64,000 bases of DNA from NCBI RefSeq assembly GCF_021134715.1, contig NC_060025.1, positions 8,060,001-8,124,000 on the forward strand, read 5' to 3'. A program made the position numbers and the translations under genes. The stretch is from Daphnia pulex. Taxonomy: Eukaryota; Arthropoda; Branchiopoda; Diplostraca; Daphniidae. Shown here piece by piece: positions 23,483-63,126 of the stretch (position 1 is the stretch's first letter; every line of letters begins with the position of its first letter). The notes beneath the pieces are model-generated. The model ran no database searches and was not told the DNA's origin. It was given only the letters and a program-made list of their open reading frames with translations.

Positions 23483-23775
23483 TATAGATGCGGGCGAACA
23501 CGAGTTGATCATTCAGCTGTCGGTTCGTTGTCGAATTTTCCCAAAATAATAATTCATGATAATTAAAGATAAGGTAAAATTTAATTGAGTGGTCAACGTT
23601 AGTATATTGTAACATTGAAGTAACAGCTTTAGGCTTTAAAAAAACAAAAAGAAGCATAGAACTCTAAATGTGTGCAGATAAGCGATCAGGTATGCAGTGC
23701 AACAAAGCTTTTGATGAAGGTGATATGAAGGTGAAATGTGGACCAGCCAGTGAACCAGTGAACTCACATCATTTT

Positions 23776-25489: not shown

Positions 25490-25740
25490 TTCTTCCTTAT
25501 AATTTCTATATATCGTCTTCATTTAACTCTCTTTGAGCTTTTTTTTTGTTCGTTAGAATTCCGATATATCCGCGAATTTCCCCTTCAGAGGGGAGAAAGT
25601 GCTTTTCTCTTGCTGCTGGTTCGTCCACCTGTTTTACTTCCTCAAGAAAAATACCCAGCATATGCCGTCAGCCCAAATGCTAAAAATGCAGATATAGTGA
25701 GAGCTGTTTATTAAGGAAGCGCATATTTACCTTGCATTCA
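25490..25740 (+). repeat. Duplicated block upstream of receptor 1
   Basis: About 250 bp containing GAATTCCGATATATCCGCG, repeated at about 30970-31190 with moderate divergence. In both places it lies upstream of a TNFR-like gene copy, so the duplication carried 5' flank and gene together. Confidence 0.7.
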
Positions 25741-26501: not shown

Positions 26502-27236
26502 ATGAATTCGCAGTGCTTCAAGTTCCTTTTACTTCTTTTCTCTGTGCTCATGCTGACAGAATCCCAATCCAGAGAAATTTCTATTTCCGTAAGTAAAATC
26601 GAAGGCGATATTTATTTACTAACTTGAAACTTCATTTCGTTTTATGATGCTGTGCTATAGTGCGCTGAAAATATGCCTTGCAAAGCCGGAGAGTATTGCA
26701 TGGAATCTTACTGTGAACGATGCATCCCTTGCGAGTCCCTTTATCATCGCCAATCATCGTCGACGAATGGCGAAGCATCTTGCGCAAGAAACACGACCGA
26801 ATGCGGACCGTGTCTACCAGGGTATAAAAAGCTGAACGCATTTTGTTTTAATTTTATTCATACCGTATTAGCCTATAACCTTGATCGAATTTTGACAGAT
26901 ACCAGAATCACAGTACAACCGACGGAAGCCCTTCCAGGGATTGTTTCCCTCTGATTCCAATAGCTGTTTCGACTTATTCTATCGCCGACTGGAAGTTGAT
27001 TGTCGTATTTCTGTGGCTATCAATTATTTCCATTTACCTCGTCGCAAGGAAATTCGATTTACGGAAATGTAAGATATGCCGTTAAATATTTAATCGCGTG
27101 TAAAAATATAGATGCTAATTATTAGCTGATTCATTCAGGTTGCACTCGTGTTGGCTCTGTCCTGGCGGTGAATAAGGAATCGGAGTCATTCACAAACAGA
27201 GCAGTCCAGTCAGACGACACAGATTGTCAGGATTGA
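26502..27236 (+). CDS. Small single-pass receptor with TNFR/Grindelwald-like cysteine domain (copy 1)
   Basis: Four exons (26502-26588, 26661-26821, 26899-27068, 27139-27236) give 171 aa. Signal peptide (FKFLLLLFSVLMLTESQS). Exon 2 encodes a compact domain with spacing C-x5-C-x5-C-x4-C-x2-C-x2-C-x16-C-x6-C-x2-C, containing CKAGEYC and CERCIPC. A short stalk with an NHST glycosylation site precedes a membrane helix (LIVVFLWLSIISIYLV), then a ~40-residue cytoplasmic tail. The layout (signal, one CRD, one helix, short tail) recalls small TNF receptors such as insect Grindelwald; that assignment is by pattern only. No death domain. Paralog with identical exon phases at 28180-28898. Confidence 0.7.
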
Positions 27237-28179: not shown

Positions 28180-28898
28180 ATGCATTTGGGGTTCCCAGTT
28201 TTTCTCGTCCTCGTGCTCATGTCAGAATCCAGGTGGATTCCAGACGATCCGGTCCCCGTAAGTGACAATGACTCATCGCTAATCTGTTCGAATTTATGTC
28301 GCAATAATAAGTTTTAATATAGGCTTACTGAATTAATTTTGTTTCCTTTTCTGTCTGTGTAGTGTACTAATTATGAAGATTGTCAAGATGGAGAGTTTTG
28401 CTCCCATTCTTACTGTGAACGATGCATACCTTGTGAGACCTTTAATCGTCAACCAGCCAGTAATAAAGCATCTTGCGCAGAAAACTGGACAGAATGTGGA
28501 CCTTGTCTAACAGGGTAAACTTCTGAAAGCCATTTTTTAAAATACAAATTGTTACGATTTCATTCCTGTCGGATATTACAACCTTGATTTTACAGATACA
28601 ACTATCGTAATACAACTGTGGGTCACAGTTACCAATGTTACCCGTCGACGGACGAGCGCCCGCCGAATACAACTCCCGGCGAATGGCGATGGATAGTCGT
28701 ATGGATATGGCTATCAACTATTTCCCTTATTCTCATCTTCATGAAATTCAATGTTTTCTATTGTAAGAAACTCTTGATCTAGTAAGGATGATAGCGTGTT
28801 AATAAGCTAAGTTTCAATTGTGTTCTACAGTTCTTCGTACCGGTAGTTGTACTCGTACGAGTACTCGTAGTAGTACACGCACCAGCATCAAGCTTTAA
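28180..28898 (+). CDS. Small single-pass receptor with TNFR/Grindelwald-like cysteine domain (copy 2)
   Basis: Four exons (28180-28257, 28363-28514, 28596-28762, 28831-28898) give 154 aa. Signal peptide (FPVFLVLVLMSES). The cysteine domain keeps all nine cysteines of copy 1 (C-x5-C-x5-C-x4-C-x2-C-x2-C-x13-C-x6-C-x2-C) and the central YCERCIPCE. The membrane helix is WIVVWIWLSTISLILIF. The cytoplasmic tail is short and Ser/Thr/Arg-rich (TRTSTRSSTRTS), unlike copy 1. Intron phases match copy 1. Tail divergence suggests different signalling partners or relaxed constraint. Confidence 0.7.
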
Positions 28899-29239: not shown

Positions 29240-30950
29240 AAGCCGCAATATTTATTCTTTACTGGACACCTAGTGGAGGAATTTTAAACTGCGCTATCGA
29301 ATCATGATTGCTCGTTGAGTTGTTGTCGTCTGCGTTATTTACGCGTGGCGTTTGGTGTTGTTTAACTGTTAACTCTGTTGGTTGGGCCAAATGACCGTTG
29401 AAGAAAAGGAACTTTGATCTTATTTCATGGAATATTTGTTTTTAAAACTATGTAAAATGGAAAGAACATCGACAAACAGAAAGTTCATTGTTCAAGATTA
29501 AATTCTGCTTGTTTGGGGCACAAAGTGCATCAACAAATTTTTGAGTTAACAAGTTTTTGTGTTGGATTTTAGTTAGGAAACTAAAACTGATGGTGTTGGG
29601 TAGCTGCAACTATAACCTTAAATCACCACTAACTGTGATAGAATGAATGTTTTTCCGTGCACATGCACTGCTTCATGGAGTTGAACAATTAGCTTTAGCG
29701 TAATTATTGCCAAGTTTTTTTTTTCCCTTGGCCCTTTACTAAACTCTTCATTTATTAATTTACAGATTAGCAAGGGGGCACACAAATGACATGCACACAT
29801 CATGGATGGAAATATTTCGAAATAGGATGTTGATTCAAGCTAAGTATTGAAAGGAATGAATTATACTTCAGTTTTATCTCAAGAGGTCACACTATTTTAT
29901 TTTTACTGCATTTATCATCATTATCATTACCTAACTGAGGAGCTAAAGGTATCTTTTTCGTAGGTCTAAATGCCATCTCAGGTTTACCCATCCTACAACC
30001 GAATGACAATCAACAGGCAATGAGACAGCAGTTAGGCCACAACATCTCCACCCATTTGTGTGACCACTGAGTCAAGTGACAGCATTTGAGTTGTTTGTTT
30101 CCCCTTTACGACGACATCAAGACCAGACGTAAAATGATTTTACCTCTCGTTCCATTTGGTTCAAGGAATCGGCCTGAATCAACTACCAAAGCGCTTTTAC
30201 TTAAGGTTTGATTTTCTCAACGTTTTTTCTTTTTCTACGTCTTCACGAAATCAAAAAAATAATTCAGCACAAGTACGAATAATCACGTTGGTAAGGTGAG
30301 TTAAAATTAGTAGTTGGTAGTTGAGGTAAACCAAGAAGAAGAAGAACCAACCATCATATTCAAAATTTCTTTAGAACTTGTTAAGTGTAGTTTCTTAATC
30401 ATATACAAGATGGAGAATCAATGTTTGCGCAAGGCGCAATTACAGTTGAGAAAAAAGGAAATAAAAGATGGATTATGCTAAATTTCGCCGGTTGACCGCC
30501 CATATCATCGACAATCTGATGCCCTTGCCAATAAAAGTAAAATCGTAGGAGGGACAACAATGAGCAGTAACAGAGGCCTGGTAGAGGAGAGACAAAATAA
30601 CTGACAAGGCTGTTCGCTACCAAACGACGGTGAGTTCAAATTGGGTCAATAAAGTATACTCCTCTCTTATTCAATTTGCTCTATTTTCATCTGATCTTGA
30701 ATACTTAAAAATATCTCCAGCGTTTTTGCTGCGGGTAATCGACGTGCCGATGGGCATTCTAGGGGCCCAAAAATGCTCAGTAGTCCACGTATTCGCACGG
30801 TGTGCACTTGTTTCTAGTTTGCTGCTGTAGTGTTGCACTTCTACGCCTTTACGTAATTTTTTAAAATTTAAGTATCTAACCTTGCTTTTTTTATGTACAG
30901 TACTCTATATGGGCCCCAACACAGAAGAAGATCGCCACCGCTACAAGATC
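29240..30950 (+). repeat. Segmental duplication, copy 1
   Basis: About 1.7 kb related to 39160-40870 in the same orientation, with many substitutions and indels. Anchors include GTTTGGGGCACAAAGTGCATC (29513 and 39495), GACAATCAACAGGCAATGAG (30006 and 39978) and AAAATGCTCAGTAGTCCACG (30770 and 40768). No coding frame is conserved between the copies; a conserved non-coding transcript is possible. It ends with a single exon-B-like block at 30890-30960. Confidence 0.8.
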
Positions 30951-30960
30951 GTCGCTTTCG
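30890..30960 (+). other. Single diverged copy of the array exon B
   Basis: Acceptor-like TTTTTATGTACAG, then ATGGGCCCCAACACAGAAG, GATCGCCACCGCTACAAGAT and CGTCGCTTTCG before GTAAAAA. This matches exon B of the tandem array at 41.4-46.6 kb, including the intron 3' end (CTAACC, T-tract, ATGTAC). It is the unamplified counterpart in the other segmental duplicate. Confidence 0.75.
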
Positions 30961-30969
30961 GTAAAAATT

Positions 30970-31190
30970 CTAATTTCTATATCGTCGTCATTTAACTCTC
31001 CTTTCTTTTTTTTGTTCCTTAGAATTCCGATATGTCCGCGAATTTTCCCTTCAGAGGGAAGAAAGTGCTTTTCTCTTTCCGCTAGTTCGTCCACCTGTTT
31101 TACTTCCTCTAGAAAAACCCAGCATATGCCATCAGCCAAAATGGTAAAAATACAGTAGTGAGAGCTGTTTATTTAGGAAGTGCATATTGT
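30970..31190 (+). repeat. Duplicated block upstream of the decayed receptor copy
   Basis: Partner of 25490-25740 (GAATTCCGATATGTCCGCG, CAGCATATGCCATCAGCC). It joins directly to the exon-B-like block, so the breakpoint of this duplication lies near 30960. Confidence 0.65.
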
Positions 31191-31370: not shown

Positions 31371-31756
31371 ATGGATTTCAAATCCAAAAATTATGGATAT
31401 GGAAATGCCTTCGATTTCTTTTTCGTTCTCGTGCTAATGTCAGAACGACTCAGAATCCAGAAAAATTTTAAAGTAGCGCCGAGCCGTCACTCATCGCTAA
31501 TTTTCTAGTTCAAACATGTGTGTGGCGAGAGGTTCCGCATCTTTATATCTAGCTTTTGATTGCATTTTAAAAAATGTGTGTGTGGGGGGTATGATAACTA
31601 TATTTAAACAAAAGCTAAACTTCAATTCGTTTTCTGTGTAGCGCTAAAAAAAATGCCTTGCAAAGCTGGAGAGTCTTATACTTTGAACGATACACACCAT
31701 TGCACACCTTGCGAGTTCCTTCATCGTCAATCATCGTCGACGTGTCTACCAGGTTA
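31371..31756 (+). pseudogene. Decayed third copy of the TNFR-like receptor
   Basis: A first-exon relic at 31371-31470 encodes FFFVLVLMSE, matching copy 2 (FLVLVLMSE). A cysteine-domain relic at 31643-31754 encodes MPCKAGES, CTPCE and HRQSSST as in copy 1, followed by CLPG. The relic lacks most of the middle of the domain: the span between HRQSSST and CLPG is deleted, two cysteines are lost, and the block opens with a stop just after the acceptor. No membrane exon was found downstream. Confidence 0.7.
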
Positions 31757-33872: not shown

Positions 33873-35220
33873 TGCAATAAGACAAACTTAAATTAGAACA
33901 GAATGTTGGTTTTCAAATAAGAACACTTAACGACGTACCAATAGTATAATCAATGCAATTTTCAGTGCAGATAAAGAGGCTATTGAAACCCTAAAAAGGA
34001 AATAACATCACCGACAAGTCCAAATGACTGGAGTTCACGAATCAAATGATTGAAAATTGGAAATATGAATGATCAACGGATTTTTCATTTCAGTCATGCA
34101 ACAATGCCAAGTTACGAATATTCGCAGTTAAGTCTGAAATTAATAATAAAAAATGCGACTCGCATAATTCGTTTTAGATATAAAATTGTTTTGAATTAAA
34201 GTCTAATTTCATACGCAAACTTAATTTTATACAGTTGTGTTTTAGTTTGTTGCAGTCGTGAGAATTGAGTCATGACGTCATGAGTTGTCAAAGATGGCGG
34301 ACGCCTTGTGTTATAATTCGTCTCGTGTTCGTAACGTTGATGCGTTGATGGCGGTTTTTACGGGTTTTTACGAGAGTTTTTGTTTCATTTTGTCATTATT
34401 ATTGTGCCGGGCCGACACAATCTTTAGTTGTTTTCGTCACTTTTTCCCTCACACTATAAAGATAAATATGTCTTTTTCACAATTCAATTTCTGTTGGTTG
34501 GAAGTTGGAACTATTTCATTTAGTTTTGCTAACTGTAGAATGAATTAAGAAAATTTTTGTGCTGACGCATTTTTGAAAAAGGGCCGGAAAAGGGTAACGG
34601 CATATGATTGTCCTATGCATTCGGTTTTGGAGTTATAGCTGGATTGCTTGGCAGATGTTTCCTTATAATTTGTGATAATGTCGGATAATGTGTTCATTTC
34701 CAGCCTAATCAGCAGGGTAGTGTTGGTGAGTGTGTTTACTATTCTTGGTTTTATAGATTCATTTAAATTTTATTGCACATGGGGTAATCCTGAAAGTGAT
34801 AAGTTATTATTTTTTATTTGTAGAAGAATCTTGAAGATTAACGAGTTTCAAACCATGCTGTCTAGACAGCATCATGATCATCCAAGATCCACCACATCCA
34901 AAAACCGAGTAGCATTTTACATGTGCAATGTTCTTAAATGTAAAACTATTGATTGGTATAGGCCCAAATTGATTTCGACCTCCCGACGGACTCCCGAGTC
35001 CGCCTGCTGCTCACTCCCATTACACAATATTGGCCTGGGAAATCAACCCTGTCTCAACTCTTTAAGTCGCCAACAAATTTTAAATGAAAAATAATTTGTT
35101 AACTGAAACTGTAAAAGTAGGTTAATGAATAATACTACAATTTAATACGCCAGCATCGTTATATACGCTGGACAGGATCAGTATTAGCCTATAAAACGCT
35201 TCATAAACAATATAACTATA
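33873..35220. other. Spacer with palindromic CRE-like site, no gene
   Basis: Upstream region of the Tudor gene. A 12-bp palindrome CATGACGTCATG (34271-34282) contains the CREB/ATF site TGACGTCA. Plus-strand open stretches (34285-34548, 34672-35094) have no motif and no clear splice partners; a divergent non-coding transcript is possible. Confidence 0.35.
34271..34282. promoter_or_regulatory. CRE-like palindrome
   Basis: CATGACGTCATG, a perfect palindrome holding the consensus cAMP-response element, about 430 bp upstream of the Tudor gene coding start, within the probable promoter region. Confidence 0.35.
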
Positions 35221-35222
35221 AC

Positions 35223-35695
35223 GGGTCGGGAGGGCGAGTCGGATAAGGCGTCGTTTTAGGAAACGATAGGCACCATGAGACCAGGGTTCGATTCCCGTAG
35301 CATGCATAATTTCTCCCTGACCTGATAACACCCCATTTAAAAAAAACAAAAACAATCCATGGATGCCTAATAACGTGAAATGCAATGATCCTTAAAGTAA
35401 ACGAATTTACAGATTAGAGCGACCACTAGGTCAAGAGATCACACAATATGTAAGCGAGTATGCGGTTGCGTGTACCCCGAATTACTATAAGTCAATTCCA
35501 ATTGTGTGAGATACACTCGAAAATCTAGCCTCCCAATTGATATTGTTGATATGCCAAATATCTTACGTCAAACTTAATTGATATTCTGGCTATACCAAAA
35601 ATATCTAAAGTCAACCTTGAAAATTTATCCGTTTACCGAAGGGTTCACCATAATTTTTTTAAATACCCTGCCCTGCTGGTACGTGCCAACGACCA
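35223..35695 (+). repeat. tRNA-headed repeat, left arm of an inverted pair
   Basis: Begins with a tRNA-like head (A-box-like GAGTCGGATAAGGCGTC, B-box GGGTTCGATTCCCG at 35285-35298) and continues with a body through 35695. The same sequence recurs inverted at 36250-36730. The head cannot fold as a normal tRNA: its anticodon loop has six bases and the ends do not pair. It is SINE-like, or one end of a foldback element. Confidence 0.65.
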
Positions 35696-36249: not shown

Positions 36250-36730
36250 ACTGGGCTGGCACTGGCAGGGTGTAGTATGAAAAAAAATTTAATGGTGAAC
36301 CCCTCGGTAAACGGATAATTTTCAAGGTTGACTTTAGATATTTTTGGTATAGCCAGAATATCAATTAAGTTTGACGTAAGATATTTGGCATATCAACAAT
36401 TTCAATTGGGAGGCTAGATTTTCGAGTGTATCTCACACAATTGGAATTGACTTATAGTAATTCGGGGTACACGCAACCGCATACTCGCTTACATATTGTG
36501 TGATCTACTGATCTCTTGATCTAGTGGTCGCTCTAAGCCTCTAATCTGTAAATTCGTTTATCTAAAGGTTCGAATTGCATAATCTTTTAGACACCATGCA
36601 TTGTTTTAATGTGTATTTTTGTTAAAGGGCGTGCCCGAATCTGGGAAAAACTGTGCTTACCACGATAATCGATCTCAGGGTCTTATGGTATAGTAATCAG
36701 TGAACGACGCCTTAACCGTCTCGCAAACCC
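36250..36730 (-). repeat. tRNA-headed repeat, right arm of an inverted pair
   Basis: Reverse complement counterpart of 35223-35695. The tRNA-like head (GCGAGACGGTTAAGGCGTCG) is at 36702-36723; its B-box is eroded. The best conserved part, about 35390-35650 against 36290-36565, is near-identical apart from a short insertion in the right arm. Confidence 0.65.
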
Positions 36731-36896
36731 AACCCTTTCAATTATTTTGTTTATCAAGCAGTTTATAGTTTATACCTGTCCTCCGTAAACAACGATGCTG
36801 CCGTATTAAATTCTAGTTTATTTAATATTCACTTAATAACTTTTACAGTTTTAGTTATTCAAATTATTCTTAATTGCAAATTGTTGGCGACTGGAG

Positions 36897-39159: not shown

Positions 39160-40870
39160 TTAGCAATTATTTTTTATTGGCCATCTAGTAGAGGAATTTT
39201 GGACTGCTCTATCGAATCCCAATCGCTTCTTGTCGTCAGTCGCGTTCTTGGCGTTTGGTCAGTTTTGCCGTTTTGGCATGCTTTTGCCTTTTGGTGGATG
39301 CTGGATGTTAAGATTTGTGGATGATTGGAAATTGGATGGATTGGATTTGTTGGTTGGTAATGAAGAAAACAATCTTGAGACTACTTTTATCTTCTTATAA
39401 GTATGCAATATAATATTTGTTTTTAAGACTGTAAAATGGAAAGAACATAAGAATAACAGTAAGTTTATTGTTTAAGATTAAATTCTTCTGTTTGGGGCAC
39501 AAAGTGCATCAACATATTTTGAGTAAACAATTTTTTTGTTGGTTTTTAGTTAGGAAACTAAAACTGATGGGTAGCTGCAACTATAACCTTAAATCACCAA
39601 TAACTGTGATAGAATGAATGTTTTTCCGTCCACATGCACTGCTTCATAAAGTTGAGCAATGAGATTTATCGTAATTATAGCCAAGTTTTTTGTTTCCTTT
39701 CACTAAATTAAAATTCATTTATTGATTAACAGATTACTAGAGGAAATAAATATAAAATGCATACATCATGCATGAAAAATATTTCGAAACAGGATGTTGA
39801 ATTGGCTAACTTTTGAAAGGATTTATAAGGAATGCTGCAAATACTTCAATTGTATTCCGTCTGAAGAGGTCACACTATTTTACTACATTTATCAATATCA
39901 TTACCTAACTGTGGAGCTAAACCTATCTTTTTTGTAGGTCTGAATGCCATCTCAGGTTTACGAATCCTGCAATTGAATGACAATCAACAGGCAATGAGAC
40001 AGCAGTTAGGCCACAACATCTCCAACCATTTGTGCGACCACTGAGTCAAGTGACAGCATTAAGACCAGACGTAAAATGATTTGACCTCCCGTAAATGTTC
40101 ACTTATTTTTACTACGTAGGTAAGGGCTAGGAGAAACATGTCAAAATTGTCGAGGATTACATGTCAATCAGATTTTTCACAGGGCTTTTTCAGCCGCAAC
40201 GTTGGTGGAAGAATAACGCTGGACAGATCAAGCCGAACTAGCCACACGGGGAAAACATCAAACGAAGAAAAAACAAAACATATTGTTGGAAAATGTCTAG
40301 TGACTGTATTCTAGGTAATTGTATTTGTGCAAATTGTTAAGCTAATAAACTATCTTTATCTTTTGTGATAACGAATAAGCTAGGTGCATTATCTACGTTA
40401 TCTCCATTAAAACCAAATTAGGTCAAGATTTTGGCATTAGATTTTTCTACCTCGTCATGCTTGAAGCAACAATTGAGATTAACACACTTAGGCTACACCT
40501 ACTAATTTGAGTTGACTCGACACTTTGACGACGCATAATTGTGAGATGGTGTTGTCAAGCCAGCGTCATAACAAGGTTAAAGGGGAGGAGAGACAAAATA
40601 ACTGTATCAAGGCTGTTCGCTACCAAACGATGTTGAGTTCAAATTGGGTCAATAAAGGTTACTCCTCCCTTCAATTGCTCCATTGTCATCTGACCTCGAA
40701 TACTGAAAAACACCTCCAGGGGTTTTGCTGCGGGAAATCGGCGTGCCGATGGGCATTACAGAGGCCAAAAAATGCTCAGTAGTCCACGTATTCGCACGGT
40801 GTGCACTTGTCTCTAGTTTGCTGCTGTAGTTTTGCATCTTCACGCCTTTGCACTTGGATTAATTTCGTTT
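39160..40870 (+). repeat. Segmental duplication, copy 2
   Basis: Partner of 29240-30950, same orientation. It leads, through about 0.5 kb of unrelated sequence including a short TTAAGCTAAGG-type low-complexity stretch (41040-41160), into the 18-copy exon array. Confidence 0.8.
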
Positions 40871-41390
40871 TATGCATTGCCTACACAATTTGTCGTGGTT
40901 TCTCTGTAGTGTTTTGTGTCGTTGATGGTCGTAGATTTCGTTTTACTATCTCATCACTATATCAGCACAATTGCATCTGCACTGTAATAGTCTTGTAGTG
41001 TTCGTAGATTGATTCACCTTCTTTGTTGTCCACACCAGTAGCTACTTAATTAGAGTAAGCCAATCTAGATAAGGTTAAAGCTAAGCATAAGTTAAGGATA
41101 TTGTAGGTTAAGCCGTTAAGCTAAGCTAAGGCTATTGTAGGTTAAGTTAAGTTAAGGTTTAAGTTCACGATAGAGTTAATTGCAAATTTACTGTGGTGCC
41201 TCTGTGATGTAGAAAATTCGTCTTTAGCAATCCCCAACCCTAACGTGTCAACTAATAACTATTTTTCATTCAGGAAATTGCAATCTAAATAGATGTTTTA
41301 GCTGTATATATTCTGTTTTTGCTTAATTGATTATGGTTTAAAAAAACTATAAAGTTTATCCATCATTTGTCGTTGATGTAATTAGGATCA

Positions 41391-41450
41391 TGGACCGGAG
41401 AGGATCGCCGCCGCCACTGCAAGATAGGACCCTGGCCCACGGGTCGAAGG
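41391..41450 (+). other. Probable first exon or upstream junction of the array
   Basis: ATGGACCGGAGAGGATCGCC opens a short frame that joins exon-B-like sequence (GATAGGACCCTGGCCCACGG) and ends at a GTACATT donor at 41451. Spliced to the next exon A it continues only to an in-frame TAG, about 40 codons in all. It looks like a fusion of exon A and exon B sequence. Confidence 0.45.
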
Positions 41451-44400
41451 TACATTTTATTTGATTCTGAATGCCTTTAACTTCTTTTATTAATGTTTTT
41501 GGATTTTATTTAGACTGGAGAGGATCGCCGCCGCCACCACCACCGGAGCCGCTTCAAGATCGCCGCACGCTAGGACCTTCGCCAATGGATGTCAGGTATA
41601 TTTTTTAATTCTAAGTGTCTAACCATACTTTTTTTATGTACTTTAGATGGGACCCAGGACCAAGGAGGATCGCCGCCGCCACTACAAGATCGTCGCTTCA
41701 AGATAGGACCCTGGCCCACGGGTCGAAGGTACATTTTATTTGATTCTGAATGCCTTTAACTTCTTTTATTAATGTTTTTGGATTTTATTTAGACTGGAGA
41801 GGATCGCTGCCACCGCCGCCGCCACCACCACCGGAGCCGCTTCAAGATCGCCGCACGCTAGGACCTTCGCCAATGGATCTCAGGTATATTTTTTAATTCT
41901 AAGTGTCTAACCATACTTTTTTTATGTACTCTAGATGAGACCCAGGACCAAGGAGGATCGCCACCGCCACTACAAGATCGTCGCTTCAAGATAGGACTCT
42001 GGCCCACGGGTCGAAGGTACATTTTATTTGATTCTGAATGCCTTTAACTTCTTTTATTAATGTTTTTGGATTTTATTTAGACTGGAGAAGATCGCCGCCA
42101 CCGCCGCCGCCACCACCACCGGAGCCGCTTCAAGATCGCCGCACGCTAGGACCTTCGCCAATGGATGTCAGGTATATTTTTTAATTCTAAGTGTCTAACC
42201 ATACTTTTTTTATGTACTCTAGATGGGACCCAGGACCAAGGAGGATCGCCGCCGCCACTACAAGATCGTCGCTTCAAGATAGGACCCTGGCCCACGGGTC
42301 GAAGGTACATTTTATTTGATTCTGAATGCCTTTAACTTCTTTTATTAATGTTTTTGGATTTTTTTTTAGACTGGAGAGGATCGCCGCCGCCACCACCACC
42401 ACCACCGGAGCCGCTTCAAGATCGCCGCACGCTAGGACCTTCGCCAATGGATGTCAGGTATATTTTTTAATTCTAAGTGTCTAACCATACTTTTTTTATG
42501 TACTCTAGATGGGACCCAGGACCAAGGAGGATCGCCACCGCCACTACAAGATCGTCGCTTCAAGATAGGACCCTGGCCCACGGGTCGAAGGTACATTTTA
42601 TTTGATTCTGAATGCCTTTAACTTCTTTTATTAATGTTTTTGGATTTTTTTTTAGACTGGAGAGGATCGCCGCCACCGCCGCCGCCACCACCACCGGAGC
42701 CGCTTCAAGATCGCCGCACGCTAGGACCTTCGCCAATGGATGTCAGGTATATTTTTTAATTCTAAGTGTCTAACCATACTTTTTTTATGTACTCTAGATG
42801 GGACCCAGGACCAAGGAGGATCGCCGCCGCCACTACAAGATCGTCGCTTCAAGATAGGACCCTGGCCCACGGGTCGAAGGTACATTTTATTTGATTCTGA
42901 ATGCCTTTAACTTCTTTTATTAATGTTTTTGGATTTTATTTAGACTGGAGAGGATCGCCGCCACCGCCGCCGCCACCACCACCGGAGCCGCTTCAAGATC
43001 GCCGCACGCTAGGACCTTCGCCAATGGATGTCAGGTATATTTTTTAATTCTAAGTGTCTAACCATACTTTTTTTATGTACTCTAGATGGGACCCAGGACC
43101 AAGGAGGATCGCCGCCGCCACTACAAGATCGTCGCTTCAAGATAGGACCCTGGCCCACGGGTCGAAGGTACATTTTATTTGATTCTGAATGCCTTTAACT
43201 TCTTTTATTAATGTTTTTGGATTTTTTTTTAGACTGGAGAGGATCGCCGCCGCCACCACCACCACCACCGGAGCCGCTTCAAGATCGCCGCACGCTAGGA
43301 CCTTCGCCAATGGATGTCAGGTATATTTTTTAATTCTAAGTGTCTAACCATACTTTTTTTATGTACTCTAGATGGGACCCAGGACCAAGGAGGATCGCCA
43401 CCGCCACTACAAGATCGTCGCTTCAAGATAGGACCCTGGCCCACGGGTCGAAGGTACATTTTATTTGATTCTGAATGCCTTTAACTTCTTTTATTAATGT
43501 TTTTGGATTTTATTTAGACTGGAGAGGATCGCCGCCACCGCCGCCGCCACCACCACCGGAGCCGCTTCAAGATCGCCGCACGCTAGGACCTTCGCCAATG
43601 GATGTCAGGTATATTTTTTAATTCTAAGTGTCTAACCATACTTTTTTTATGTACTCTAGATGGGACCCAGGACCAAGGAGGATCGCCGCCGCCACTACAA
43701 GATCGTCGCTTCAAGATAGGACCCTGGCCCACGGGTCGAAGGTACATTTTATTTGATTCTGAATGCCTTTAACTTCTTTTATTAATGTTTTTGGATTTTA
43801 TTTAGACTGGAGAGGATCGCCGCCACCGCCGCCGCCACCACCACCGGAGCCGCTTCAAGATCGCCGCACGCTAGGACCTTCGCCAATGGATGTCAGGTAT
43901 ATTTTTTAATTCTAAGTGTCTAACCATACTTTTTTTATGTACTCTAGATGGGACCCAGGACCAAGGAGGATCGCCGCCGCCACTACAAGATCGTCGCTTC
44001 AAGATAGGACCCTGGCCCACGGGTCGAAGGTACATTTTATTTGATTCTGAATGCCTTTAACTTCTTTTATTAATGTTTTTGGATTTTATTTAGACTGGAG
44101 AGGATCGCCGCCACCGCCGCCGCCACCACCACCGGAGCCGCTTCAAGATCGCCGCACGCTAGGACCTTCGCCAATGGATGTCAGGTATATTTTTTAATTC
44201 TAAGTGTCTAACCATACTTTTTTTATGTACTCTAGATGGGACCCAGGACCAAGGAGGATCGCCGCCGCCACTACAAGATCGTCGCTTCAAGATAGGACCC
44301 TGGCCCACGGGTCGAAGGTACATTTTATTTGATTCTGAATGCCTTTAACTTCTTTTATTAATGTTTTTGGATTTTATTTAGACTGGAGAGGATCGCCGCC

Positions 44401-46606
44401 ACCGCCGCCGCCACCACCACCGGAGCCGCTTCAAGATCGCCGCACGCTAGGACCTTCGCCAATGGATGTCAGGTATATTTTTTAATTCTAAGTGTCTAAC
44501 CATACTTTTTTTATGTACTCTAGATGGGACCCAGGACCAAGGAGGATCGCCGCCGCCACTACAAGATCGTCGCTTCAAGATAGGACCCTGGCCCACGGGT
44601 CGAAGGTACATTTTATTTGATTCTGAATGCCTTTAACTTCTTTTATTAATGTTTTTGGATTTTATTTAGACTGGAGAGGATCGCCGCCACCGCCGCCGCC
44701 ACCACCACCGGAGCCGCTTCAAGATCGCCGCACGCTAGGACCTTCGCCAATGGATGTCAGGTATATTTTTTAATTCTAAGTGTCTAACCATACTTTTTTT
44801 ATGTACTCTAGATGGGACCCAGGACCAAGGAGGATCGCCGCCGCCACTACAAGATCGTCGCTTCAAGATAGGACCCTGGCCCACGGGTCGAAGGTACATT
44901 TTATTTGATTCTGAATGCCTTTAACTTCTTTTATTAATGTTTTTGGATTTTATTTAGACTGGAGAGGATCGCCGCCACCGCCGCCGCCACCACCACCGGA
45001 GCCGCTTCAAGATCGCCGCACGCTAGGACCTTCGCCAATGGATGTCAGGTATATTTTTTAATTCTAAGTGTCTAACCATACTTTTTTTATGTACTCTAGA
45101 TGGGACCCAGGACCAAGGAGGATCGCCGCCGCCACTACAAGATCGTCGCTTCAAGATAGGACCCTGGCCCACGGGTCGAAGGTACATTTTATTTGATTCT
45201 GAATGCCTTTAACTTCTTTTATTAATGTTTTTGGATTTTTTTTTAGACTGGAGAGGATCGCCGCCGCCACCACCACCGGAGCCGCTTCAAGATCGCCGCA
45301 CGCTAGGACCTTCGCCAATGGATGTCAGGTATATTTTTTAATTCTAAGTGTCTAACCATACTTTTTTTATGTACTCTAGATGGGACCCAGGACCAAGGAG
45401 GATCGCCGCCGCCACTACAAGATCGTCGCTTCAAGATAGGACCCTGGCCCACGGGTCGAAGGTACATTTTATTTGATTCTGAATGCCTTTAACTTCTTTT
45501 ATTAATGTTTTTGGATTTTATTTAGACTGGAGAGGATCGCCGCCACCGCCGCCGCCACCACCACCGGAGCCGCTTCAAGATCGCCGCACGCTAGGACCTT
45601 CGCCAATGGATGTCAGGTATATTTTTTAATTCTAAGTGTCTAACCATACTTTTTTTATGTACTCTAGATGGGACCCAGGACCAAGGAGGATCGCCGCCGC
45701 CACTACAAGATCGTCGCTTCAAGATAGGACCCTGGCCCACGGGTCGAAGGTACATTTTATTTGATTCTGAATGCCTTTAACTTCTTTTATTAATGTTTTT
45801 GGATTTTTTTTTAGACTGGAGAGGATCGCCGCCGCCACCACCACCGGAGCCGCTTCAAGATCGCCGCACGCTAGGACCTTCGCCAATGGATGTCAGGTAT
45901 ATTTTTTAATTCTAAGTGTCTAACCATACTTTTTTTATGTACTCTAGATGGGACCCAGGACCAAGGAGGATCGCCACCGCCACTACAAGATCGTCGCTTC
46001 AAGATAGGACCCTGGCCCACGGGTCGAAGGTACATTTTATTTGATTCTGAATGCCTTTAACTTCTTTTATTAATGTTTTTGGATTTTATTTAGACTGGAG
46101 AGGATCGCCGCCACCGCCGCCGCCACCACCACCGGAGCCGCTTCAAGATCGCCGCACGCTAGGACCTTCGCCAATGGATGTCAGGTATATTTTTTAATTC
46201 TAAGTGTCTAACCATACTTTTTTTATGTACTCTAGATGGGACCCAGGACCAAGGAGGATCGCCGCCGCCACTACAAGATCGTCGCTTCAAGATAGGACCC
46301 TGGCCCACGGGTCGAAGGTACATTTTATTTGATTCTGAATGCCTTTAACTTCTTTTATTAATGTTTTTGGATTTTTTTTTAGACTGGAGAGGATCGCCGC
46401 CGCCACCACCACCGGAGCCGCTTCAAGATCGCCGCACGCTAGGACCTTTGCCAATGGATGTCAGGTATATTTTTTAATTCTAAGTGTCTAACCATACTTT
46501 TTTTATGTACTCTAGATGGGACCCAGGACCAAGGAGGATCGCCGCCGCCACTACAAGATCGTCCCCGCCGCAGCAAAGGACTTCGAAGATCTTTAAATGG
46601 TACGGT
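41391..46606 (+). repeat. 18-copy tandem array of a two-exon, two-intron unit
   Basis: Head-to-tail array with a typical period of 288 bp. Exon A is usually 91 nt (starts ACTGGAGAGGATCGCCGCC, ends GGATGTCAG), intron 1 is 51 nt (GTATATT to TGTACTCTAG), exon B is 82 nt (ATGGGACCCAGGACCAAGG to GGGTCGAAG), and intron 2 is 64 nt (GTACATT to ATTTAG). Exon A copies start near 41514, 41793, 42081, 42370, 42656, 42944, 43233, 43519, 43807, 44094, 44382, 44670, 44959, 45248, 45527, 45815, 46094 and 46383. Copies are almost identical; differences are mainly in the CCG/CCA triplet tract of exon A (82, 88 or 91 nt) and the T-tract before its acceptor. The first copy starts with an ATG-bearing variant (41391) and the last exon B diverges after CAAGATCGTC into CCCCGCCGCAGC and a GT at 46600. 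The frame analysis in the findings argues against a protein. It could be a multi-exon non-coding transcript, a repeat-expanded UTR, or a minisatellite that captured splice signals. Confidence 0.95.
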
Positions 46607-46809
46607 ATAACTATTTCTTGCCTAAAGTTGTGTGAGTGTTTTATCGTGTTAAATGTGTGTGTGTAAGTATGGATTGGTTGTTTATTCCCTATCCAATATA
46701 AGCTTACCTTCGCAATTACGGTATATCATTATGGTCTAGAAACAGTAGTCACTCCATTACCATAATCCTATTTTCCTTTCGCATCACTCTTTTGGTTAGC
46801 CAAGGTAAA

Positions 46810-47050
46810 AATTTAGTTTTGTTGGTCTAGTTTTAGTTTAGTTATAGTTTTAGTTTAATATAAGCTTAGTTTTAGTTTAGTTTTTTAGTGTTCTAGACGG
46901 TGGATAAGTGTTTTAATTTAGTTTTAATTTAGCTTTAGTTTTAGTTTAGTTTGTTTAGTGCTTTAGTCTGGTTTAGTTTTATTACAGTAGATAATTGCTT
47001 AATTGGTAACCATCTAGGTAGTTGTTATTGTAGTTTAGTTTTAGCTTATC
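46810..47050 (+). repeat. TTTAG-rich low-complexity stretch
   Basis: Irregular repeats of AGTTTTAGTTTAGTT over about 240 bp, just downstream of the exon array. It is not a regular TTAGG telomere repeat. Confidence 0.6.
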
Positions 47051-47059
47051 AATATAAAA

Positions 47060-48280
47060 ATAAAAGCCGTTATTAAAAGTGGAAATTGATAAACATTTCA
47101 CGTTTTCCTCTTGGTGTAAATTCTGGCAAGGCTATTCAAGATTCATCGGCGTTTATGTTCGTTGTTTGATTAATCAGAGGGAACATTGAGGCATTGAGGC
47201 AATATCGACTACTGCGCTTACTTTTTTCGCTGAGCTGTCAGCTGTGTTAGTCTTTTTTTTATTATTATTATTTTTTTTTTGCTGAAATCTTGAAAGTCGT
47301 ATCTCGAATCTGAATTCTGATTATCATAATATTTCACAAATCTGAAGTATTTTGGTTTCGCAACGTCATACAAATAATTGATCGCATGTTCCATCTCCAT
47401 CATTCGTCATTTCGTCTGCTGTGGCGTGGTTTGGTCTGATCTGGTCTGTTAGCTTATGGTTTCTTACAACAACATTGGGAAGACTGAGTGATTTACGCTG
47501 AGTTGATAGTACTCAATTAATCATTTAAAAAATAAACATTTGTGTGTAGGTAATGTAGCAAGAAAGTAAAAAGTGATAAAATTGCAGTTTGAATAATATG
47601 GTTCAGACATGGACACATGAAGATCCTAAAGTTTAAATTTAACTAGGTAATATTTACCAGCCTTCACATTCAAATTATCCTCAATGCTTATAAATTTCTT
47701 ATGATTCTAATGATTCTAATGATCACATGGGAGGAAGAAAGAGCTTGTGGGATACAGGCTAAAGATGAAATACAAGATTGGTGTTGACGTCCAAAGCAAT
47801 CAGCAGTATATAATGTGATTCAAAAGAACTGATCGTAACATCATCCAAACCAAGTAATAAAATTATTATTGTAGTTAAATATTTCCCCCTGATTTCATGA
47901 AATATTTCTGTTTGCAGCCAAAGTTTTAACTAGACAGCTTTAGACAAGTTCGTCTTCATTGAAAGTCAAATCAAGCTTCCACAAATTGGAAATTGCAGCT
48001 CATAAACATTGTGTTGACTCCACCCAAGTTGTAAAACCAGAAAACAGAATCTCTCATTCTCATGCAGTGGCAATAGTTGAAGAAAAGTTCTCCGAAGATC
48101 TAAATGACACAGAACTTTACACTTGTAATTTCAAGTATCTGTTGGACTTCGGTAACCAAGTTTGAAAAGGATTGCAATAGGTTTGAATAAAGAAAATTCA
48201 AAACGTTTGAGAAAGAGTTGGAACACGAAAAATCCAATGGGTCATTACTGGAGTAGAGATCTCATTCATTGGTGCCTACC
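47060..48280. other. Spacer, no supported gene
   Basis: AT-rich sequence with T-tracts (47250-47280). The open stretch at 47959-48165 shows no motif or conservation with anything else in the window. Confidence 0.35.
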
Positions 48281-57329: not shown

Positions 57330-60300
57330 TTAGACTTGAGTGACGTTGCGCTTTTTGCGTTCGGAGGCCAACGACGTGAAGGATCCGTGGAGCGGCAGGT
57401 GGGACAAGAGTCGACCCGTCCCGTTGACGGAAGTCGGTTTGGGGAACGTCGGCGGACGTGATTTCGTGTTGTTGTTGTGAGCGGCCGCTGTTGTTGTCGG
57501 ATAGTAGCCGCCGTCCTGATCCACCGAGGACGATCCTTCGTAGTCGACCGAGTACGGCCGGTAATCGGCCGACGGTGGCGTGGCCGAGGCCGACGATTGG
57601 GTGTAGATGTTCTGCTGGTCGGGATGGATCATTCCGCCGTAGATGGCGCTGCCGGAATTCAAGTGGTAGCTGCCGCTGATGAAAGCCGAGTCGTTGGGCG
57701 CCGTGAAATGATCCGAGGGCTCGTTCTGGCCGCAGGGGCTGTGACGGCGCTCGTGCTCCTGAAGGAGCTGGGAAGCGCTCCAGTGGACCGGAACGGTGCG
57801 TCCGTCGTAGATGGTGACGGCCCCCGATTGGTATTGGCTGAGAATCTCCTTGTTCTGGTCGACGGAAGCCAAGTCGATGGTCGAGACGCTCTTGTTCTCC
57901 GGCGCCGGATACAAGGCGCTGCTGACCGTCGTGGGGACGTAGGCGAATTTGGGCGGCCCGGATTTACTGTTCTGCTCCTTGTCCTTGCGTCTCTTGGCCG
58001 CGATGACAAAGTAAACGGCCAGGACGAGGATTAGCAAAGCCACGCAGATGCCGGCCACAATGGCCGCCCAGTGGACAGTGCTGAGACCGCCGCCGGCGAA
58101 CCACTGAGGCGGAACGTCATTGACAGACAAGGAAGTGGCCGGCCAGACGGGCGCTGGCGTCGTGGTGGTGGTAGGTGGACTGGGCATCCACAGTTGAACC
58201 AAATTGGAGACTCGGCCTCGATTGCCACGTCTGTCGACGGCCCGGATGGCGGCGTAGAACCAGCGATCGTAACGGTCGAAATCCATCAGAGTCAAATCCA
58301 TCGGGTCGCCACTGAGACGCGGAGTCGGGGCCGGCAGAGCTTCGGCTTGCTGGAACGTCGACGGCACTTTGAGCCAAGTTTTGTTTGAGGCCAATCGCAG
58401 TTCGTACGTGTAAGCTGCAATGAATCAGAAATAAATTTAATTTAATTGAATTCAAGTTAAATTGAAAAGGGGGAAATGTTTTACCTGTGCCAATGTCGAA
58501 ATCGTCGCCGACGGCGGTCCACTGGAAAGTGACTCGCTGAGTTGTCGGTTCGACATGAACGCGCAGATCGGTGACTCGAGACGGTGGAAGGATGTCCAAA
58601 GCTTCCGGCTCTTGTCCAAAAGTCGTCGAGTTGGCTGTCGAGGATGGAGAGCTGACAAATTGGCTACTTCCGGCGCTGATAACTTCACCCGGAACCAGTC
58701 GACTGAAGGCTCCAGTCAATTCACGGCGTTCCAGTGGCACTCGAATCACGCTTCCGCAGCATTCAACCGAATCTATTGACGTGGGAAAATTCAAGTTTTA
58801 GAAACTGATTCAATTTTAATCAAATTAAATCTAATTCAAAAATTACCAATTTGTTTGGAGGTCGGAGATGTGCGGATCGTGTAGGCCCTTCCGTCCATGG
58901 CATCGACGGACAGTGTGATGGAATAGGTTCCAGTGCCTCTAAAGTATTTACCGAAATAACGAGAGTAAACTCCATCGCCTCGAGTGATATCCGGATCTGA
59001 ATAAAAATCCAGAATGTCGTTTCAATTAAAAAAAACTGTCGAAAATGAAATATGTTTAGTGATTAATTAATACCTGCGTTGCCGTTGTCAAACAGGTCCA
59101 GGACCAGTGTGTTGTTGCTGGAGGAATCTTGATTGGCTGGCGTTCCGGTAAATTGAATAATGGCCCGAACTCTGGCGTCCAAAACTGGCAATTCACCAGA
59201 TTTCACCTGTTAAAATCAAATAAAACAAAATGTTGTTGATTCGATTGTCCTGGACTATCAAATAATTTTGTTTTATTTCATTACCGTTGCCAATAGAATG
59301 AAGGGGGCATCGCCGACGGCCGGAGGAACAATGCGAAGTTTGGCCGTCAAAGGTCCCCGCTGTTGTTGCAGAGATGCGGATGTTGTCGACCGGGCCTTCA
59401 GTTTGGACGTGACTTTCACGAAATGCGATTGGTGACTCTGCGATCGCCTGTCGAACGAATAGCGCCAAACTCCAGACTGGGCAGAAAAAAAAAATGAAAT
59501 GTTGAAAGAATAAAGACATTGTTGTTGTTGTTGTTGTTGTAAAATAAAATAAACCGTGAACAATAAAAGTCCAGGGGGAAAAAAAGAGGAAAATTTTGAT
59601 TACCTTCTCGATAGGTTCAAGTGGCGTGACGTAAAGGCTGGCCATGGCCGTTTCAGAGATGCCGCGGTGCTCGACGCCGTCAGGGGAGACGAGTCGGATG
59701 TCTCCGACGTGCGTGTTGAAGTCGCGGGAATAAAAGTAGACGGCCATGACGGTGTCCCGGCCCAGGGAAGGGTCCATGTAAAAAGTTCCGTTGACCCAGC
59801 CGCTGGCCGACTCACTGCCAAATTCTTGCTCGTGCACCTGTAACAACAACAACAACAACAACATTAGAAAAAAGATGAAATAAAATTATACATGTAGTCA
59901 ATAATAACGCGTATAGCTCTCAATCAAACATTGCCTGCACACACATAGTCCAAATAATTTCAGAATAAAATAATTCTTATTGACTTTTGATCCGCTGGAT
60001 CGACGTTGGTAATTATCGACCGTGTTTCAAAAGTTGTTGATGTTGGCGGCGCACGCCCTTCTAACGAGAGGATCGCGTGTACTTGATGTGGGGGGAAATA
60101 AACAAAACCGAATAAAAATAAAAAAAGATAAAATCTAAATCATTTCGGAAAAAAAAATTTGAAAAAATGAAAACTACGCCAGTTCTATCGATTGCGAAAC
60201 CGGAAGTGAACATGGTAGCAGCTCTATTACAAGAAAAATAATTGAATAACATCTCTATTAGATATTTTAGAGAAGGGGGGGACTGGATTGTTCGTGGTAT

Positions 60301-63126
60301 GCGAACGAACCGCATTCTTTCGTCAAACAAGTTCACCGCCAAACAATAGGAGGTAGTACATAAGATAATATACTGCATCCAAGTTATCCAAGAAACTTGA
60401 AAGAAATTCCCTCCATCTTTAAAAGAAAGAAAGAAATATCTTTCGTTGCTATCTGTCGAACCCTTCAACTAATACAATTCCCCCCAGTTTTCTTCTCTCC
60501 TTTTCTTCTTCTCTATTTTATTATTCTACGGTCATCCGCCCGTTTTAAAAGAAGAAGGAGCCCCTTTTATTCAAATTTTCTCATCCATTCTTTTTGGGGG
60601 TTTTCTAAAAGGAGAATTCAAATATAAAAAAGGGACGCGACGAATTGTTGGAATTTTGGTGTGTGTGGTTATCGCCCACTAAAATGTGCTGACGTGCGTT
60701 ATTATCTGATGGGCAATCGGTAGATGGCGTCGATGGCCAATCAGCGGTCGTAAATTTCCGACAAAAAGGTCCAAAGGAAATAAAAAAGAAACAATGGGCC
60801 AACTGTTTAAAAAAGATTAAAAAGAAAAAGAAAAACTGACCAGAGTCGGGACATTGTCGCTGCCTTGGTGGAAGTCCAGGGTGGTCAGAAGAGCGTCGCC
60901 CAGTTCGATGAGCATGGAAATGTGCGACATGGTACCAACTCCTTTGCTGGCGACGGCCGTCATCCGACCGCCGGTGGCTTCGGCCAGAGATTGGAGATTG
61001 CGCAAGGCTCCCGCCCGGTGGGTTCCAGGCGTCGGGACGTAGGCGAAGGCCACCACCGAAACGCGAACTTGTTTGCGGCTGGCCAGGGCCAGAGCGCTCT
61101 GCACCTGGTCGCCGCTCGACGAACCTGTCGTTATCAATACGATAACGTCGCCGGCCGACGAAGCTCCTCCACGTTCCAGCATCTGGGAAAATGAAAAGAA
61201 AGAAAAATTGAATATTGAAATTAATTTGTGAAACGAAATTAAAAATGTGACAAAGATATTTTTATTTACCGCGATGGCTTCGGCTAAAGCGCAAGTTAAA
61301 CAGGATTCCTGGACGGAACCCGTTGCCGATCCGCCGTTGGACGGCATGGAAATGAAGACGGGAATGGCCGAGGCGACTTGCTCACGACTTCCGGGACTGC
61401 CCAGCCGCACCATGGGCCCATTTTGGCCTTCGGTATGGATCTGGACCGAGTCTGCAAAGCTCAAAATGCCCAGTTCCGTTTCGTCGGCCAAATCGTGCAG
61501 CACCAATCTCCTGGTGGCGCTCCTCACGTACTTCCAGTGATCCTATGAAAAACAAAACAAATTTGCATACATTAAACCAATCACGACCCAAACTAGGGGG
61601 GAGATAAAACAAAAGCCCAGTTCACGTTTCAAAAAGTGAGTCATTGATACAGTACGCCGAAAGCTCAAAAAACAAAAACAACAACGGCACGTAATAATTT
61701 ACGGCTCAAATTTCTTTTCAGTCAGAAAATTACAAAAGTTTCATCTTTCCACCAAGTTGTCGGCGGGAGTGATTAATCTAGATAAAATAATGGATGCCGT
61801 GTGTTTTTCTAATAATCCCGATCAAGTAAAAACAAAGAAGTTTGGCAAAGACAAGATGATCGCCACTTAGAAACCAAATAATGGAGAGACTTGTTTAACC
61901 ACTTACTCGTTCGTCCATCGGTGAGCTCTTGTCCAAGGCCAAAACGTAACGTGGCAGGGCCGCTTGTTTGTAATGGAAAACAGTTTCCAGCCGGTTGAAC
62001 ATTTGACCGTTCCTGAATGTCATCCGACAGAAAAAATAATAAAACCATCGGTTAGAAAAAAACAAAGAAAGAAATTCCGGAATTCCAATTATATCTTCTC
62101 GATTGATTTTTCACATTAGGATGTCGTCGACCCAAATGAACCGAGAGTCAATAACACTGCCAATTGAAATTTAAAACAAAAACAAGTTTGGCCAGTTTCT
62201 TCTTACATTGTTCTCAAGTCCTGGTGGCCGAAAACGACGTCCCGGACGCTCTGGCCGAAGCAGAGGAGGTTCTGCTGGGTCGGCGCCATATCGTCGTGCA
62301 GCGAAGCGTCGCAAAAAGCGGTCGCCTAAAAATGATAACATTTTTCCAAGGTTAAAAAAAAATGTCTAATTTCAAATAAGTTTAAGCTAAAAACCATCAA
62401 ATTAAGCGGTTCTTATTGTGCGGTTAAATTGGGAAACGCTCTGACGCGCATTTTCGATGTAGCGGGAAAAGTTTTGAAATGTCAAATTTTCCCGCTGAAT
62501 CATCGCGAAATTTGAAAACCAAAAAAATTATTCAAAAAACTTACGGCGGTGAACGAAGTGGATGAGGTGGTTGTATTAAGGCAGTTGGATGAATTGTCGC
62601 AGTCGGAAGAGCGGGCGGATTGGATGGATCGACCGGTGGCATTGGATGCGGAAGCCGCCGCCGCTGGTGAAGACGGTCCACCGACGCAGAAGAAATCGGG
62701 AAAGAGTCCGTCCTGATCGGCGGCCGCTCCTGTGCGTTCGTTCAGGTCGAACACTCCGTATCGATACTTTGCGAATTCTCTGAGGAAGCGTCGACCTCTG
62801 ATCCAGACATCCGAGACGTTGGCGGAGGCGGAAGGCGTCGTGGCTTTGAAGAAGAAATCGGGTCCGGCCGAAATGTAGTCGCCCATTTGTCCGCAGTCGC
62901 GCGACTGCTGGGTCCAAAGGGCGTCGGCTCCGCCGGTGAAGAGCGGATGAGCCGTCGCCGAGACTTTGACGTCGGCCTGTCCGTAAGATTCCAGACGAGT
63001 GCGGCTAACATTTCGGCCGCAGTCGGCGCTGGTCCATCCGGTCGGCAAGACGACGGATACGCTGCGGATAAAAGCCCGTCCGTCCGTCGCTTGATGAAGC
63101 AGCCGTGACGATTCCCTTATGACCAT
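57330..63126 (-). CDS. Calcium-activated chloride channel regulator (CLCA) family protein, 5' end not resolved
   Basis: Eleven exons: 63126-62545, 62325-62207, 62012-61907, 61542-61270, 61182-60841, 59837-59604, 59476-59285, 59206-59074, 58996-58847, 58772-58485, 58414-57330. All phases fit. Order: CLCA N-terminal domain (VVLPTGW, GPDFFF, KYRYGVFDLNE), Cys-rich link, VWA domain (YVLALDKSSPMDER, LGILSFADSV, DVIVLITTGSSSGD), beta-sheet region (GVWRYSFDRRS, DNGNADPDITRGDGVYSRYF), fibronectin-III-like domain (PPSRVTDLRV, WTAVGDDFD), membrane helix (AAIVAGICVALLILVLAVYF) and a ~230-residue Ser/Tyr-rich cytoplasmic tail. CLCA proteins are secreted or membrane-bound, self-cleaving modulators of TMEM16A-type chloride currents. 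Here the HExxH position reads REFAK and the MIDAS reads DKSSP rather than DKSGS, so protease and metal binding may be lost. An acceptor above 63126 implies an upstream exon carrying the signal peptide. Confidence 0.9.

What the first reader, a model, noticed from the sequence alone, without database searches (positions are those of the whole stretch)
41391..46606. Eighteen-fold tandem amplification of an exon-intron-exon-intron unit with intact splice signals
Seen: a ~288-bp unit is repeated 18 times almost without change. Every copy keeps two exon-like blocks (about 91 and 82 nt) and two tiny introns (51 and 64 nt) with GT..AG ends and pyrimidine-rich 3' ends. A plain minisatellite would not be expected to preserve four splice sites per unit over 36 exons. 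Inference: the transcript could be built from dozens of near-identical micro-exons, giving variable copy number, circular RNA or combinatorial splicing. High copy identity indicates recent expansion or ongoing homogenisation.
Basis: partly seen in the sequence, partly recalled or inferred. Interest (0 to 1): 0.9.

Follow-up and report, generated by a model that had tools for sequence, protein, structure and literature searches.

The report
Runaway tandem array carrying splice sites
In a probably arthropod genome, a short stretch holding two exon-like blocks and two tiny intron-like blocks has been copied eighteen times in a row; it appears to descend from the start of a neighbouring gene-like copy, looks able to be spliced but not to code for a long protein, and no RNA data were available to show that it is used.

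Summary
In detail: 41420-46563 is a 288-bp unit x18. All 36 intron-like blocks (18 of 64/65 nt, 18 of 51 nt) keep GT..AG. The signals are better than chance: with recalled splice matrices plus a branch motif, exactly these 36 pairs are found in the array, none on its other strand, and 5 in the remaining 58.8 kb, both strands.

The inference that uniformity shows selection fails: the units differ so little that missing all eight GT/AG bases is expected (about 0.78).

New here: the window holds a single-copy paralogue (blocks within 29431-30957). Upstream blocks match the array's flank (84-89%), and 30853-30957 matches intron 2 + exon A of all 18 copies (78-79%), starting at the intron's first base. 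So the introns were probably inherited from one leader intron and multiplied by tandem duplication.

All 35 internal exons are 1 mod 3, so the frame rotates and stops follow; the longest ATG-started ORF is 83 aa. A long protein is unlikely with these sites.

Best reading: a recently expanded, probably spliced, probably noncoding copy of a gene leader. Precedents: LPA KIV-2, SNORD116 host exons, intron gain by tandem duplication. Expression is unshown.

The parts
41390..46606 (+). Whole array: leading A-like block, 18 x (intron 1, exon B, intron 2), 17 x exon A, trailing A-like block
   Evidence: TRF 41420-46563, 288 bp x 18.0, 97%; block parse
41390..41449 (+). Leading A-like block starting with ATG, ending at the first intron 1; shorter than exon A
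   Evidence: sequence; parse
41450..41513 (+). First of 18 copies of intron 1 (64/65 nt, AAG|GTACAT ... TTAG). Other starts: 41729, 42017, 42305, 42591, 42880, 43168, 43454, 43742, 44030, 44318, 44606, 44894, 45182, 45462, 45750, 46030, 46318
   Evidence: 5' score 6.0, 3' score 7.1
41514..41595 (+). First of 18 copies of exon B (82, 88 or 91 nt)
41596..41646 (+). First of 18 copies of intron 2 (51 nt, CAG|GTATAT ... CTAAC ... TAG). Other starts: 41884, 42172, 42458, 42747, 43035, 43321, 43609, 43897, 44185, 44473, 44761, 45049, 45329, 45617, 45897, 46185, 46465
   Evidence: 5' score 6.5, 3' score 8.9; matches 30853 onward
41647..41728 (+). First of 17 copies of exon A (82 nt, starts with ATG or, in the terms of one variant, ATGA, directly after the AG). 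Other starts: 41935, 42223, 42509, 42798, 43086, 43372, 43660, 43948, 44236, 44524, 44812, 45100, 45380, 45668, 45948, 46236
   Evidence: frame 0 MGPRTKEDRRRHYKIVASR-stop resembles MGPNTEEDRHRYKIVA at 30909 (76% of 17)
46516..46599 (+). Trailing A-like block; unit similarity ends about 46563; a GT with donor score 6.7 follows at 46600
40585..40849 (+). Conserved upstream element, 89% identical to 30584-30850; candidate promoter/leader with TCAGT at 40776; 63 columns with one difference from 40768
   Evidence: column shuffle p 0.03
40850..41389 (+). Stretch between the upstream element and the array with no counterpart found elsewhere in the window
   Evidence: flank query, E up to 1e-3; similarity ends after CGCCTTT
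39412..40060 (+). Upstream part of the segmental duplication, 84% to 29431-30086
29431..30850 (+). Single-copy paralogue, upstream part; matching blocks are 29431-30086, 30115-30150 and 30584-30850, the rest does not match
30853..30957 (+). Single-copy relative of intron 2 + exon A; the array's AG is AT here, and another AG (TACAG, ending 30900) lies 8 nt further upstream, in a 5-bp insertion
   Evidence: 18 rows, 77.6-79.3%, E 5e-7 to 7e-11; alignment

Best explanation
The array is a degenerate copy of the start of a neighbouring gene-like unit. Blocks of upstream sequence, a leader intron and the following exon exist twice, about 10 kb apart (29.4-31.0 kb and 39.4-41.7 kb). In the second copy, the piece made of the leader intron and the exon was duplicated into an A/B pair, the two halves diverged, and the pair was then multiplied to 18 copies, probably by unequal exchange. 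Each copy carried along a complete set of splice signals (GT, branch-like motif, pyrimidine tract, AG, high-G+C exon against low-G+C intron), so one ancestral intron became 36. If transcribed from the copied upstream element, the RNA would be spliced into a roughly 3-kb product of repeated 82-91-nt exons, with exon number free to vary by skipping; because all internal exons are 1 mod 3 it would be noncoding or carry only short ORFs. Shown: repeat structure, splice-signal quality, paralogue, frame rotation. Inferred: order of events, promoter activity, splicing, noncoding role.
For: Array and 36 of 36 GT..AG blocks. High-scoring intron pairs: 36 in the array, at these blocks, 0 antisense, 5 in the remaining 58.8 kb on both strands. 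Paralogue: 29431-30086 to 39412-40060 (84%), 30584-30850 to 40585-40849 (89%), 30853-30957 to intron 2 + exon A of 18 of 18 copies (77.6-79.3%); local scores far above 500 letter shuffles for intron 2 (60 against a maximum of 37) and exon A (59 against 29). A and B exons are related (48 against a maximum of 31). Exon A frame 0 resembles the paralogue exon (76% of 17 residues), with 3 synonymous and 2 other codon changes in frame 0 against 0/5 and 1/5 in the other frames (the A variant used is the one closest to the paralogue, found in 4 of 17 units, and one 3-nt gap was set aside). All 35 internal exons 1 mod 3; 12, 13 and 13 stops in the three frames of the spliced array (19, 26 and 24 with flanks). 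Intron gain by duplicating an intron-exon boundary is documented in potato (PMC4974935, Results section read).
Against: No RNA data: neither transcription nor splicing is shown. The paralogue's 5' site is weak (2.5; 17% of all GTs in the rest of the window score as high), so the ancestral intron itself is not certain. Between the upstream element and the array lie 540 bp with no counterpart, and the paralogue's GT is not kept at the end of the upstream element. The relation of intron 1 to intron 2 is only suggestive (33 against a shuffle maximum of 37); exon B barely exceeds shuffles against the paralogue exon (28 against 27); intron 1 does not match the paralogue's next intron (22 against a mean of 21.4). 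An open frame through the array exists if weaker sites are used (125 of 598 two-intron models; 18 one-intron models, of 122 by the recount).
Confidence: 0.6

Rival explanations
1. Silent satellite: the array derives from a gene leader but is no longer transcribed; the splice signals are fossils copied by homogenisation.
For: Near-identical copies make signal retention uninformative; no long ORF; the paralogue's donor is not kept next to the upstream element.
Against: The upstream element keeps 62 of 63 columns around a TCAGT, more than its own average predicts (column shuffle p 0.03), as a working core promoter would, though this is weak.
Confidence: 0.25
2. Protein-coding repeat gene spliced at weaker alternative sites, for example intron 2 starting 5 nt earlier, giving 56 codons per unit in one open frame.
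For: Such models exist (donors at unit positions 82 and 232, 168 coding nt per unit, open); exon B lengths differ only by multiples of three.
Against: The needed donor scores 2.6 against 6.5 for its neighbour 5 nt away; open models are common here (125 of 598) because the exons are poor in stops; multiples of three are what CCN slippage gives anyway; Pfam finds nothing up to E 1 in the two array peptides tried, one of them read through a stop.
Confidence: 0.08
3. Splice-like signals are chance features of an A+T-rich/G+C-rich alternating satellite.
For: Only two independent introns; matrices recalled, not trained on this genome; thresholds set from the array itself.
Against: In-place shuffles of the intron blocks recreated an intron-like pair in 1 of 2000 trials each and never both; only 5 comparable pairs in the rest of the window; intron 2 has a relative with a strong AG site in the paralogue.
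Confidence: 0.07

Closest known systems
LPA kringle IV type 2 repeat (human)
   Same: Tandem unit of exon-intron-exon-intron, 1 to more than 40 copies (passages seen in PMC4378929)
   Different: 5.5-kb unit with 4-kb and 1.2-kb introns, part of a protein; here 288 bp, introns of 51 and 64 nt, frame rotates
SNORD116/115 host exons (IPW-A, IPW-G)
   Same: Tandemly repeated noncoding exons in a spliced host RNA (passages seen in PMC4742849; start of the abstract of PMC9369261 in the listing)
   Different: Those introns hold snoRNAs; no Rfam family matched 40500-42400 at E up to 1, and 51-65 nt leaves little room (recalled)
[quoted passage not shown]
   Same: Duplication across an intron-exon boundary passes on branch site, pyrimidine tract, AG and G+C contrast (PMC4974935, abstract and Results section seen)
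   Different: One new intron there, confirmed by reads; here 36 presumed introns, no reads
Polyubiquitin gene UBC with dual-specific splice sites
   Same: Tandem array in which splicing can change the number of units (PMC10809524, abstract and one section seen)
   Different: UBC units are coding and one site acts as donor or acceptor; here intron blocks separate the exons
Internal tandem repeats in human segmental duplications
   Same: Repeat expansion changes exon-intron structure of duplicated genes (PMC2812944, outline and first part of Results seen)
   Different: Those units average 30 bp and 4 copies

Membership tests
Tandem exon-intron copy-number array (LPA KIV-2 kind) | Head-to-tail unit holding two exon and two intron blocks | tested here: met
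   (by sequence; splicing not shown)
Tandem exon-intron copy-number array (LPA KIV-2 kind) | Unit codes for an in-frame protein domain | tested here: not met
   with the strong sites: 35 of 35 internal exons 1 mod 3, stops in frame 0 of all A and B; weaker sites can give an open frame
Tandem exon-intron copy-number array (LPA KIV-2 kind) | Copy number varies between individuals | not testable with these tools
   one sequence only; no genome held
Repeated noncoding host exons (SNORD116 kind) | Transcribed, spliced, noncoding exons | not testable with these tools
   no RNA data; lack of a long ORF fits
Repeated noncoding host exons (SNORD116 kind) | snoRNA in the introns | tested here: not met
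   no Rfam match
Schistosome micro-exon genes | Short exons (3-81 bp) between long introns, making secreted proteins (start of the abstract of PMC10526429) | tested here: not met
   exons 82-91 nt, introns 51-65 nt, no open frame with the strong sites
[quoted passage not shown]
   for intron 2: 30853-30957; for intron 1 only a suggestive likeness to intron 2
[quoted passage not shown]
   no relatives available; two exact-pattern scans of viral contigs found nothing
[quoted passage not shown]
   no RNA data

The most novel reading that the evidence does not exclude
Runaway intron gain: at a single locus one leader intron has been turned by tandem duplication into 36 working introns in one transcript, spliced into a noncoding RNA whose exon number varies between molecules and individuals.
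Probability: 0.3. Interest if true: 0.6.

Novelty: new variant of a known kind. Interest (0 to 1): 0.45.

Why it matters
[quoted passage not shown] If spliced, this locus would give dozens of gained introns with their presumed single-copy source about 10.5 kb away, and a natural test of how tandem duplication multiplies introns, how splicing pairs 36 near-identical donors with 36 near-identical acceptors, and how such an RNA is handled.

Tried and rejected
Tested and dropped: (1) one open frame through the array with the strong sites - closed; (2) open frames with weaker sites - exist, but common by composition; (3) selection on splice sites inside the array - no power; (4) known RNA family in the window at gathering scores and in 40500-42400 at E up to 1 - none; (5) tRNA - none; (6) Pfam on four conceptual peptides - none for the two of the array; (7) relatives in viral contigs by two exact 33-base patterns - none; (8) inverted repeats of 16 nt or more in 40200-41450 and 40200-47400 - none; (9) similarity of intron 1 to the paralogue's second intron - none. 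The own genome is not held. Eight literature searches; only listings were seen except for six papers fetched (PMC2812944, PMC10809524, PMC4378929, PMC4742849, PMC3152781, PMC4974935).

Rows set aside: the truncated first copy was left out of the unit alignment; its intron 2 ends CTTTAG where the other 17 end CTCTAG. In the 7 of 173 and 1 of 115 tally (typed by hand into) columns 173 and 176 and the CCN gap columns were left out, and columns 137 and 142 counted once; adding columns 173 and 176 or the first copy gives p 0.05 to 0.32.

Species was not established: 'probably arthropod' rests on gene content (CLCA, TUDOR, BTB, dehydrogenase domains), short introns and recall of cuticle-like repeats. 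A Daphnia-like crustacean was suspected from recall only.
Full report
Observation. The array is real and regular. TRF finds 41420-46563 as 18.0 copies of 288 bp at 97%. Parsing gives 36 intron-like blocks that all start GT and end AG: 18 of intron 1 (12 of 64 nt, 6 of 65 nt) and 18 of intron 2 (51 nt), with 17 exon A blocks of 82 nt and 18 exon B blocks of 82, 88 or 91 nt between them (recounted from exon anchors). Seventeen full units fall into 8 distinct sequences, the commonest shared by 7 (the truncated first copy was left out). Variants recur at spacings of two and three units (lowest mean differences at lags 2 and 3), which fits exchange of multi-unit blocks and, by inference, speaks against a simple assembly stutter.

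Are the splice signals more than chance? With recalled generic animal matrices, the four sites rank in the top 1.5-3.6% of all GT or AG in the rest of the window. Intron blocks are 22.5% G+C against 64% for the spliced product. This supports splice competence of two intron types, not of 36 independent ones.

Does uniformity show selection? No. With about 8-10 substitutions in the aligned units, missing all eight GT/AG bases has probability 0.75-0.80 (the number of events is my tally). Exons vary at 7 of 173 columns and introns at 1 of 115 (p 0.15); other tallies give p 0.05 to 0.32.

Origin. A self-comparison of the window shows a second, single-copy version: 29431-30086 matches 39412-40060 (84%), 30584-30850 matches 40585-40849 (89%), and 30853-30957 matches intron 2 plus the first part of exon A in 18 of 18 copies (77.6-79.3%, E 5e-7 to 7e-11). 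The last match starts at the intron's first base. In the paralogue the array's AG reads AT, and a 5-bp insertion supplies another AG 8 nt upstream with a similar score (8.9). Frame 0 of exon A (MGPRTKEDRRRHYKIVA) resembles MGPNTEEDRHRYKIVA there, and the few codon changes favour frame 0, so the exon may once have begun a coding sequence. Exons A and B are relatives; introns 1 and 2 only perhaps. Downstream, 30968-31188 has a further relative at 25497-25727 (88%), amid Cys-rich receptor-like genes ('receptor-like' is recalled) for which Pfam gave only Dickkopf_N at E 0.98 in the one tested.

Coding potential. Every internal exon is 1 mod 3 (35 of 35), so any inclusion or skipping shifts the frame; frame 0 of all 17 A and all 18 B blocks holds a stop, and one A copy also has a stop in frame 1. 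The spliced array has 12, 13 and 13 stops in the three frames and stop-to-stop stretches of at most 88 codons (19, 26 and 24 stops with flanks to 41300 and 46900); the longest ATG-started ORF is 83 aa. Weaker sites can give an open frame (125 of 598 two-intron models; 18 one-intron models, of 122 counted), so coding is unlikely, not excluded.

Mechanism. Most likely a duplicated gene leader whose intron-exon piece went into tandem expansion, so that one intron became 36. That such duplication can hand on working splice signals has been shown in potato. The upstream element, with 62 of 63 columns kept around a TCAGT (read as an initiator from recall, p 0.03), may still drive transcription, but 540 bp without counterpart lie between it and the array. 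Function beyond this is not shown; a spliced noncoding RNA is my first choice and a silent relic the second.

Comparison. LPA KIV-2 has the same unit plan on a 5.5-kb scale and codes for protein. SNORD116/115 host exons are repeated noncoding exons with snoRNAs between them, which were not found here. UBC shows that splicing can change unit number in a tandem array. Internal tandem repeats reshape duplicated human genes. A survey of Daphnia pulex repeats (PMC3152781, passages seen) reports long-unit repeats, including a 276-bp class in coding regions, but no such array in the passages seen. I found no description of a sub-300-bp array with two complete introns per unit in the listings, which is a limited search.

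Noticed in passing
10951-12163 and 23769-24723: Two related repeat-rich ORFs on the minus strand (YGAP/YSPPAP-type, cuticle-like by recall), 82-95% alike in pieces.
   Followed up: no
26661-26849, 28363-28515, 31647-31742: Three Cys-rich receptor-like relatives on the plus strand (57% to the first); the 28.2-kb one has no Pfam family (best Dickkopf_N, E 0.98).
   Followed up: partly
35065-35666 and 36275-36892: Inverted pair of about 600 bp at 81%, possibly ends of a mobile element.
   Followed up: no
5429-6071 and 6138-6768: Direct duplication of about 640 bp at 83%.
   Followed up: no
46812-46949: TTTAG/TAGTTT-rich simple repeats just right of the array; a GTTAAG-rich stretch lies left of it at about 41070-41165.
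   Followed up: no
57333-63126: CLCA-type gene pieces on the minus strand (CLCA E 1.8e-16 at 62503-63126; a VWA hit below cut-off at 60820-61542).
   Followed up: no
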